Shown here: positions 27,748 through 29,340 of the stretch, in pieces
How positions within the stretch are numbered: position 1 is the first letter of the stretch
How the letters are laid out: each line of letters starts with the position of its first letter
NCBI GenBank assembly: GCA_037074705.1
Contig: CM073591.1
Location: 162,468,032 to 162,532,031, forward strand
Length of the DNA: 64,000 nt
From: Zhengitettix transpicula
Lineage: Eukaryota > Arthropoda > Insecta > Orthoptera > Tetrigidae
Direction of reading: 5' to 3'
Made by a program: the position numbers and the translations under genes
Notes under the pieces: generated by a model
What the model was told of the DNA's origin: nothing
Seen by the model: only the letters and a program-made list of their open reading frames with translations
Databases searched by the model: none

Positions 27748-28910
27748 ATGGGTATATGGATTGTACCCAAAAAACTCGATGCTTCAGGAAAAAAGAAAAC
27801 ACGTTTAGTGATCGATTATCGAAAACTTAACTCGCGAACAATAGATGACAAATTCCCCATTCCGATTATAACCGATATCCTAGAAAAACTTGGAAAATCT
27901 ATATATTTCACGACGTTAGATTTAACATCCGGATTTCATCAAATCCAAATAGATGAGAAAGATATAGAGAAAACGGGATTTTCTACAGACTTAGGTCATT
28001 TTGAGTTTGTAAGAATGCCGTTTGGCTTAAAAAATGCACCTGCCACATTCCAAAGGCTAATGAACAGAGTCCTAAAAGATTATATAAATAAAATCTGTTT
28101 AGTGTACCTAGACGACATTATAATTTTAGGAACTAGTCTCCAGGAACATTCGGAAAACATTATAAAAATCTTAAAGAAATTAAAAGAACACAACTTAAAA
28201 ATACAAATAGATAAATGCGAATTCTTTAGGAAAGAAGTTGCATATTTAGGTCATGTAATAACGGAAAAAGGAATAAAACCCAACCCGGATAAAATAGAAA
28301 CTATCAAAAACTATCCTATACCAAAAAATCCAAAACAACTTAAAGGATTCCTTGGATTAATGAGCTATTACAGAAGATTCATTGACCAATTTGCAAAAAT
28401 AACAAAACCTTTAACTAACCGCTTGAAAAAGCATGCAACAATAGACTATACCGAAAAAGATTACGTAAAATGTTTCGAGACATGTAAAGATCTATTGATC
28501 AACGACCCGATACTCGTATATCCCGATTTTACGCAAAAATTTACGTTGACTACAGACGCAAGCAACTACGCTTTGGGAGCTGTACTAAGTCAAACACATG
28601 AAGGTAGCGAACATCCAATTGGATACGTTTCAAGAACTTTAAACCCCCACGAAACTAATTACAGTACCACCGAAAAAGAATTATTAAGTATTGTATGAGC
28701 TACAACATATTTCAGACCTTACCTTTACGGAGTAAAATTCGACATAAAAACTGATCATAAACCTCTCGTTTGGTTATTTAATTTAAAAGACCCAAACTCT
28801 AATCTTAGTCGTTGGCGCGAAAAATTAGAAGAATTTAACTATGAAATAAAATTTAAATCAGGAAAAACTAATAATAATGCCGATGCTTTATCCAGAATAA
28901 GACCGGACTT
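27748..28910 (+). pseudogene. Errantivirus C pol, part 2: reverse transcriptase and RNase H
   Basis: RT is well preserved: RLVIDYRKLNSRTIDDKFP, TTLDLTSGFHQI (motif A Asp), MPFGLKNAPATFQ and the catalytic VYLDDIIILG. Thumb and connection follow (GYLGH-like YLGHVITEKGI, LKGFLGLMSYYRRFI). RNase H starts at FTLTTDASNYALGAVLSQ (catalytic Asp) and includes STTEKELLS (Glu), TDHKPLVWLF (Asp) and NNADALSRI. One TGA at 28696 replaces a Trp codon position. The macro domain begins directly after DALSRI. Confidence 0.85.
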
Positions 28911-29340
28911 TAAAATAAATTTCATTAATGAAAATTTAAGCAATGCAAAGGACATATGTTACATTGTATCTCAAAAGATCTCAAGTTTGGCAAAGGGATA
29001 GCAAAACAAATAGATAAAGAATATAATAGTAAAAACTTTTGTACTAATAAAGTGAAACGGAAAACCACTATCGTAGGTAACTGCATCAAACAAATAATAG
29101 GAAGAGATAAAATCATATTCCATTTAGTCACCAAAGAAAAATTTTATGATAAACCATGTATAGAAAATATTTCAAAATGTTTACACGAAGTAAAATCTTA
29201 TTGTATACAGAATGAAATTCATGAATTGAATATGCCTAAAATAGCAACAGGATTAGACACATTAAATTGGTGTGATATACAATACCTAGTTACAAACATT
29301 TTCAGCGACGACAGAATCATAATCAACGTATATGATCCAA
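28911..29340 (+). CDS. Macro domain (OARD1/TARG1-like) inside errantivirus pol
   Basis: Directly behind RNase H the sequence reads FKINFINENLSNAKD (first strand, RNase H frame). After a one-base slip it continues in a frame open from 28956 to 29792: LHCISKDLKFGKGIAKQ (ADP-ribose loop, G-x-G), IIFHLVTKEKFYDKP, IHELNMPKIATGLDTLNW and IIINVYD. Order, spacing and length (about 140 residues) fit a macro domain of the OARD1/TARG1 subgroup. The residues known to be catalytic in TARG1, Lys in [IL]-x-TK and Asp in GLD, are both present (residues 60 and 101 counted from 28956). Members bind ADP-ribose or remove it from proteins and nucleic acids. The slip means this copy probably does not make the fused protein. 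Function here is inferred only. Confidence 0.8.

What the first reader, a model, noticed from the sequence alone, without database searches (positions are those of the whole stretch)
28905..29340. Macro domain (TARG1/OARD1-like) embedded in an endogenous-retrovirus pol
Seen: right after the RNase H end (DALSRI) the sequence forms a complete macro fold signature: LHCISKDLKFGKGIA loop, LVTK, MPKIATGLD. The frame runs on into the integrase-proximal region. Known: TARG1 uses a Lys in a TK motif and the Asp of GLD for ADP-ribosyl hydrolysis; both are kept. Known errantivirus pols (17.6, 297, gypsy) go from RNase H to integrase without such a domain. Inference: the lineage captured a host-type ADP-ribose hydrolase, possibly to counter ADP-ribosylation-based defence or act on DNA ends. 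The continuous downstream frame and matching AT-rich codon use speak against a random insertion.
Basis: partly seen in the sequence, partly recalled or inferred. Interest (0 to 1): 0.88.

Follow-up and report, generated by a model that had tools for sequence, protein, structure and literature searches.

The report
ADP-ribose-enzyme-like domain in retroelement polymerase
In an insect genome, one lineage of virus-like retroelements carries, inside its replication polyprotein, a domain related to an animal enzyme that strips ADP-ribose from proteins and DNA; selection has kept it, which hints that these elements must deal with a host ADP-ribose tag.

Summary
Window 28956-29333 encodes a TARG1/OARD1-like macro domain (Pfam Macro 23.9 bits, cut-off 22; human TARG1 E 9e-20). 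It lies between RNase H and the integrase-proximal linker of a gypsy-type element with LTRs and a 4-bp target-site duplication. The window copy is broken (stop in RNase H, frame change before the macro domain, integrase core missing), but it is no one-off. This insect genome shows 39 macro places, 37 beside pol sequence; nine have an open frame of 1270-1276 codons, in three subfamilies. Between subfamilies A and B synonymous sites are saturated while the domain changes little (pS 0.72, pN 0.087). The catalytic Lys and Asp equivalents stand in 33 of 34 and 31 of 31 aligned rows. A related lineage in the same genome has the linker and integrase without the macro domain. The host's own OARD1 exon lies elsewhere. 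Most likely an old capture of an animal-type macro domain that acts as an ADP-ribosylhydrolase during reverse transcription or integration; activity and substrate are inferred. Against it: the published strict TARG1 pattern fails at one glycine, and subfamily C is eroded. Fish retroviruses with macro-domain genes are a known precedent.

The parts
24446..24449 (.). 4-bp target-site duplication TCCA, left copy (right copy 31692-31695)
   Evidence: read from the flanking letters printed
24450..24703 (+). 5' LTR; a tRNA-primer-site-like TGGCGCAGTCGGTAGGA begins at its last base (tRNA type recalled, not tested)
   Evidence: 97.3% identical to 31435-31691 over 257 columns, 4 mismatches, 2 gap openings
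26028..27068 (+). ORF in gag position, 346 codons
   Evidence: no Pfam match over its cut-off
26990..27679 (+). start of pol, protease-like region
   Evidence: weak aspartyl-protease matches, 17.8 bits, below cut-off
27721..28698 (+). reverse transcriptase and first part of RNase H, ended by a stop codon
   Evidence: RVT_1 E 8.4e-37, RT_RNaseH_2 E 8.8e-29
28699..29001 (+). second part of RNase H (ends at DALSRI near 28900), then runs out in the wrong frame
   Evidence: RT_RNaseH E 3.5e-11; frames
28956..29333 (+). TARG1/OARD1-like macro domain (open frame 28932-29792)
   Evidence: PF01661 23.9 bits; human TARG1 E 9.1e-20
29334..29789 (+). acidic stretch and linker domain before integrase
   Evidence: similar to other copies up to 29780; shared with the macro-less lineage
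29790..30150 (+). remnant where the integrase of other copies lies; core missing
   Evidence: no Pfam family in window:29732-29923 or 29854-30147; integrase zinc finger and rve present in L006 and L012
30151..31425 (+). ORF in env position, begins RTKRGLING (furin-like, by reading)
   Evidence: no Pfam or NCBIfam match
31435..31691 (+). 3' LTR

Best explanation
One lineage of insect gypsy/errantivirus-type retroelements took up an animal-type TARG1/OARD1-like macro domain, without introns, between RNase H and the integrase-proximal linker of pol, before its present subfamilies split. It is translated as part of Pol and so should travel with RT and integrase. The retained Lys and Asp pair most likely removes ADP-ribose, either from the element's DNA ends or single strands or from Glu/Asp of proteins in the reverse-transcription/integration complex, so that host ADP-ribosyltransferases do not block these steps. 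Shown here: the domain, its place, the open frame in other copies, recurrence, purifying selection, retained Lys and Asp equivalents, absence from a related lineage. Inferred: gain rather than loss, delivery with Pol, catalysis, substrate, benefit.
For: TARG1 match; order RT-RNase H-Macro-integrase in one frame in L006 and L012; 39 places, 37 beside RNase H or linker matches; nine open frames of 1270-1276 codons; A against B macro pS 0.724, pN 0.087, Fisher p 2.7e-31; Lys kept in 33 of 34 rows, Asp in 31 of 31 (many rows are near-identical copies); lineage without the domain, grouped with A, B and C in an integrase tree at 100/99. TARG1 removes ADP-ribose from Glu/Asp and from DNA thymidine, and K84A loses the latter (PMC8501950, passages); TARG1 removes PARP1-made DNA ADP-ribose at telomeres (PMC11102865, abstract).
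Against: No activity tested. The first glycine of the phosphate loop GxG is Ala in A and B, so the published strict pattern TKx(30,35)Px[IL]GxGxD fails in all 9 pol rows tested. Subfamily C has lost more (Thr to Val, Pro to Ser, loop shortened; no Pfam Macro hit) although its frames are open. The domain changes faster than RT, RNase H and the integrase core. The integrase tree has long branches. The AlphaFold model of the window domain alone was unusable (mean pLDDT 33).
Confidence: 0.5

Rival explanations
1. The domain is a reader, not an eraser: it binds ADP-ribose and tethers the integration complex to chromatin or DNA breaks that carry ADP-ribose, steering target choice.
For: It sits next to the integrase half of Pol; the altered loop glycine and erosion in subfamily C suggest that full catalysis may not be needed.
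Against: Lys and Asp, which serve catalysis in TARG1, are the best-kept positions (33 of 34, 31 of 31 rows), kept even in decayed copies; a mere binder need not keep them.
Confidence: 0.2
2. A passenger or spacer: taken up by chance, it now serves only as a folded linker between RNase H and integrase and is wearing away.
For: Subfamily C: 38% identity to A in the domain against 87% in RT, motifs partly lost, yet open frames; the related lineage does without it.
Against: A against B shows strong constraint while synonymous sites are saturated; pocket residues are kept rather than the surface alone.
Confidence: 0.15
3. The domain was ancestral to this branch of pol and was lost in the lineage without it.
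For: Trees here are unrooted, and gain cannot be told from loss.
Against: In the lineages read here without a macro domain (L066-L079 other than L073, and L073, L086) RNase H is followed by the linker or the integrase zinc finger directly; nearest solved relative is the animal enzyme TARG1.
Confidence: 0.1
4. A recent insertion of a host OARD1 exon in this one copy.
For: A host OARD1 exon exists at C2:186733539-186733856.
Against: 39 places and three subfamilies; 28% identity to the host exon over 107 columns; saturated synonymous divergence between A and B.
Confidence: 0.01

Closest known systems
TARG1 / OARD1 / C6orf130 (human 4J5R; host OARD1 exon)
   Same: Macro fold by sequence, loop 1 HCIS..D..G.GIA, TK with catalytic Lys, GLD with catalytic Asp
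   Different: 33% identity to human; first Gly of loop 3 replaced by Ala; strict TARG1 pattern not met; part of Pol, not a free protein
DarG antitoxin macro domain (removes ADP-ribose from DNA)
   Same: NCBIfam DarG model matches with E 2.4e-9 (window) to 5e-12 (B)
   Different: Far below that model's full-length cut-off (36.9-45.8 of 250 bits); a bacterial antitoxin
Errantivirus / insect gypsy-type endogenous retroviruses
   Same: LTRs, 4-bp duplication, ORFs in gag, pol and env positions, RT-RNase H-linker-integrase
   Different: Macro domain between RNase H and linker; 'macro' and 'ADP-ribose' do not occur in the main text of PMC12992720, nor 'macro' and 'ADP-ribos' in PMC13172572
[quoted passage not shown] 2009)
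   Same: A retrovirus-like element that carries a macro-domain gene
   Different: Additional ORFs in vertebrate retroviruses, known to me only from a passage of the review PMC4977317; the paper is not held, so macro class and exact place were not compared
Viral macro domains of coronaviruses, alphaviruses, some iridoviruses (PMC7729036, passages)
   Same: Virus-carried macro domains that counter host ADP-ribosylation
   Different: Other macro classes, not the TARG1 Lys/Asp type (recalled); not tied to reverse transcription

Membership tests
Macro domain superfamily (PF01661) | Profile match over the curated cut-off | tested here: met
   window 23.9, L006 24.3, L012 26.4 bits against 22; not met for subfamily C (L034), and 20.8 for L006 in a longer piece
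TARG1-type macro domains | Nearest solved relative is TARG1 | tested here: met
   five TARG1 sequences at E 9.1e-20 to 1.2e-19, next at 0.28
TARG1-type macro domains | Catalytic Lys (K84) and Asp (D125) | tested here: met
   33 of 34 and 31 of 31 aligned rows
TARG1-type macro domains | Published pattern TKx(30,35)Px[IL]GxGxD | tested here: not met
   fails in 9 of 9 pol rows, at the first loop-3 Gly in A/B; human and host OARD1 pass. Hence called TARG1-like, not filed as TARG1
TARG1-type macro domains | ADP-ribosylhydrolase activity | not testable with these tools
   needs an assay
Errantivirus-type LTR element | LTR pair, short target-site duplication, RT/RNase H/integrase pol | tested here: met
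   integrase only in other copies, not in the window copy
Errantivirus-type LTR element | Env of the F type | tested here: inconclusive
   ORF in env position with RTKRGLING by reading; no Pfam match
Errantivirus-type LTR element | Branches with named errantiviruses in a pol tree | not tested
   no named insect element was fetched; protein search switched off

The most novel reading that the evidence does not exclude
A reverse-transcribing element carries inside Pol its own eraser of nucleic-acid ADP-ribose: the domain cleans ADP-ribose off cDNA ends or single-stranded DNA so that integration can proceed. DNA ADP-ribosylation would then be a host barrier against retroelements in insects, and the macro domain the counter-measure.
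Probability: 0.2. Interest if true: 0.87.

Novelty: new variant of a known kind. Interest (0 to 1): 0.62.

Why it matters
Selfish elements keep extra domains only if these pay. A TARG1-like domain held by purifying selection inside Pol points to ADP-ribosylation as something an insect retroelement has to deal with. TARG1 acts on ADP-ribose on protein and on DNA, so a test of the isolated domain could show which of the two matters here. There is also a natural comparison: lineages with and without the domain in one genome, and a subfamily in which the pocket is eroding.

Tried and rejected
Host-exon insertion in one copy: rejected by recurrence. Frame artefact: rejected, since other copies are open through the domain. 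Bacterial or phage source: a viral-contig scan with the pol domain and scans of genome contigs and viral contigs with an alignment headed by it confirmed no relative; scans with the human/host pair gave one bacterial hit at 37% identity over part of the query, with no ORF of 100 codons around it, and one phage macro domain without the TK; a scan with that phage protein found only itself. These scans use short peptide patterns, so they do not show absence. AlphaFold on the single window sequence: unusable (pLDDT 33); no second job was sent, because the stated rule names window sequences and those of certain other tools, not loci of the genome search. A tree with insect OARD1s of other species was not possible. 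The whole-database protein search could not be made. Literature: the eight searches that named macro domain, macrodomain or TARG1 listed 1 to 20 papers each, of up to 1,569 that held the terms; no listed title or abstract start told of an insect retroelement with a macro domain. That is not proof of absence from print.

Full report
WHAT IS THERE. The element in the window runs between two LTRs, 24450-24703 and 31435-31691, 97.3% identical over 257 columns, flanked by the 4-bp duplication TCCA (24446-24449 and 31692-31695, read from the letters). Between them are a gag-position ORF (26028-27068), protease/RT/RNase H in pieces (26990-29001), the macro domain (match 28956-29333, open frame 28932-29792), a linker, a remnant where integrase should be, and an env-position ORF (30151-31425) that begins RTKRGLING. 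The gag and env names rest on position and reading; neither has a Pfam match over its cut-off.

THE DOMAIN. Pfam Macro matches with 23.9 bits (cut-off 22). Of 8 distinct PDB sequences at E up to 1, the first five are human TARG1 (E 9.1e-20 to 1.2e-19); the next is at 0.28, and 5m31, named Appr-1-p processing protein (a DarG relative, as I recall), is at 0.55. NCBIfam's DarG model matches the window domain with E 2.4e-9 and subfamily B with 5e-12, at 36.9-45.8 bits of a full-length cut-off of 250. Loop 1 (HCIS..D..G.GIA), loop 2 (TK) and loop 3 (MP.I..GLD..W) line up.

THE WINDOW COPY IS BROKEN. RNase H has a stop at 28696-28698; the macro domain is in a different frame from the end of RNase H; the integrase core is missing, and similarity to other copies' linker ends at 29780. 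In this copy the domain could not be made as part of Pol. Intact frames exist elsewhere.

RECURRENCE. The genome (994 Mb, 337 contigs) is an insect's: the insect odorant-receptor family PF02949 gives 121 matches, and none in 14 control genomes (that the family is insect-specific is recalled). A six-frame search with the window domain gave 53 matches, which merge into 39 places. The tool scores only its best candidates, so this is a lower bound. 37 of 39 lie next to an RNase H match upstream (33) and/or a linker match downstream (32) (for RNase H I entered the 33 of the 150 rows that lie nearby, for the linker all 48 rows). The two others are the host OARD1 exon and a decayed fragment at C2:4269238. 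Nine places have an open frame of 1270-1276 codons: two of 1276, four of 1274, three of 1270. They fall into groups that I call A (about 97% to the window), B (about 80%) and C (about 40%). Pfam on L006 (A) and L012 (B) gives RT, RNase H, Macro, integrase zinc finger and rve in that order in one frame (Macro 20.8 and 22.7 bits there, 24.3 and 26.4 on shorter pieces). In L034 (C) RT, RNase H and integrase are in one frame, but Pfam finds no Macro; its relation is seen only by alignment to A and B.

SELECTION. Nei-Gojobori counts on 8 of the 9 copies with the long open frame (L014 left out), A against B: macro pS 0.724, pN 0.087; RT 0.743, 0.028; RNase H 0.701, 0.045; linker 0.761, 0.105; rve 0.657, 0.051; integrase C-terminal part 0.525, 0.111. 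Synonymous sites are saturated, so pN/pS (0.12 for the macro domain) overstates dN/dS. Fisher test for the macro domain p 2.7e-31. The domain is thus constrained, less than RT, RNase H and rve, about as much as linker and integrase C-terminal part. A against C: macro pS 0.732, pN 0.399, identity 38% against 87% in RT; p 1.2e-7. Copies within a group are nearly identical, so no rate can be read there.

ACTIVE SITE. In TARG1, K84 is the nucleophile, D125 completes hydrolysis, S35 and T83 lie near the distal ribose and a GxG loop holds the phosphates (PMC6397177, section 5 read). Over 33 loci (36 given, 3 overlapping duplicates dropped) Lys is kept in 33 of 34 rows that cover it, Asp in 31 of 31, Thr in 26 of 33 (Val in 6 C rows, Pro in 1), the second loop-3 Gly in 23 of 31. 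Many rows are near-identical copies and not independent. The position of the first loop-3 Gly holds Ala in A and B, Cys in C, Ile in four decayed copies. The strict pattern TKx(30,35)Px[IL]GxGxD therefore fails in all 9 pol rows tested, while human TARG1 and the host exon pass. I call the domain TARG1-like and do not file it as a TARG1.

WITH AND WITHOUT. A second lineage in the same genome has the same linker and integrase type, but in L073 and L086 goes from ...LSRI, the end of RNase H, straight through an acidic stretch to the linker. L085 carries the same acidic stretch and linker, but what precedes them there is not RNase H. L073 groups with A, B and C in an integrase tree of 12 rows at 100/99, on a long branch, about which the program warns. 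In the other gypsy-type loci read (L066-L071, L072, L074-L079) no macro domain follows RNase H, by eye; L074 is interrupted by other sequence. Gain in the A/B/C lineage is the simpler reading; loss elsewhere is not excluded.

SOURCE. Human TARG1 finds 27 matches in the genome: 26 are pol places and one, C2:186733539-186733856, is the host OARD1 exon, 52% identical, covering residues 18-121 of the 121 given; the first part was not found and presumably lies in another exon. Pol domains are unbroken across that point. Identities: host exon to human 55% over 99 columns, pol A to human 33% over 121, pol A to host 28% over 107. In a small tree rooted on a very long phage branch the pol rows stand together at 80/78, human plus host at 98/95: weak support for one origin, none for a recent host origin. 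An old animal origin is likely, not shown. Contig scans gave no closer source.

HOW IT MOST LIKELY WORKS. Inference: made with RT and integrase, the domain removes ADP-ribose during reverse transcription or integration. TARG1 reverses thymidine-linked ADP-ribose on DNA and rescues cells from DarT, which K84A does not (PMC8501950, passages); DNA ADP-ribosylation by PARP1 at telomeric single-stranded DNA is removed by TARG1 (PMC11102865, abstract and introduction). Retroelement cDNA has ends and single strands of that kind (own knowledge). Other possible substrates are Glu/Asp on proteins of the complex or host antiviral proteins. A pure ADP-ribose reader is the main rival, and the lost loop glycine and the erosion in C speak for it or for a passenger.

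PRECEDENT. A review says that some epsilon-like fish endogenous retroviruses have additional ORFs for macro-domain proteins, citing Basta et al. 2009 (PMC4977317, passage); that paper is not held. Capture of accessory domains by insect retroelements is itself known, for instance viral helicases (PMC6338049, first of four parts read). The insect-ERV papers PMC12992720 and PMC13172572 do not contain 'macro' in the main text, nor does the TE-domain survey PMC12062965. The searches listed no insect retroelement with a macro domain. The kind (retroelement plus macro domain) is known; the place inside Pol between RNase H and integrase, the TARG1-like class and the insect host appear new as far as these listings go.

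Noticed in passing
window 21548-24082: An older related copy just upstream, 74% similar to 26717-27974 and to 30422-31692, lacking the part from RT to env that would hold the macro domain.
   Followed up: partly
window 35145-35456: RNase H fragment of another gypsy-type element, 59% identical to subfamily A.
   Followed up: no
window 32738-33229: Array of a 21-base repeat unit around GGAAAATTTG, open in several frames.
   Followed up: no
window 24171-24455 and 33930-34454: ORFs that read like pieces of a non-LTR reverse transcriptase (by eye).
   Followed up: no
L026-L029; G000 C4:232389, C4:284461, C4:341584, C6:153868, C3:124213784: Decayed macro-bearing pol fragments, near-identical to each other, all within about 0.5 Mb of contig ends: perhaps duplicated chromosome-end blocks.
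   Followed up: no
L034-L036: Subfamily C: open frames of 1270 codons, in L036 LTRs 99.0% identical, yet an eroded macro domain.
   Followed up: partly
L081 1722-2198: Macro domain of another class in a 428-kb virus contig, without the TK motif.
   Followed up: no
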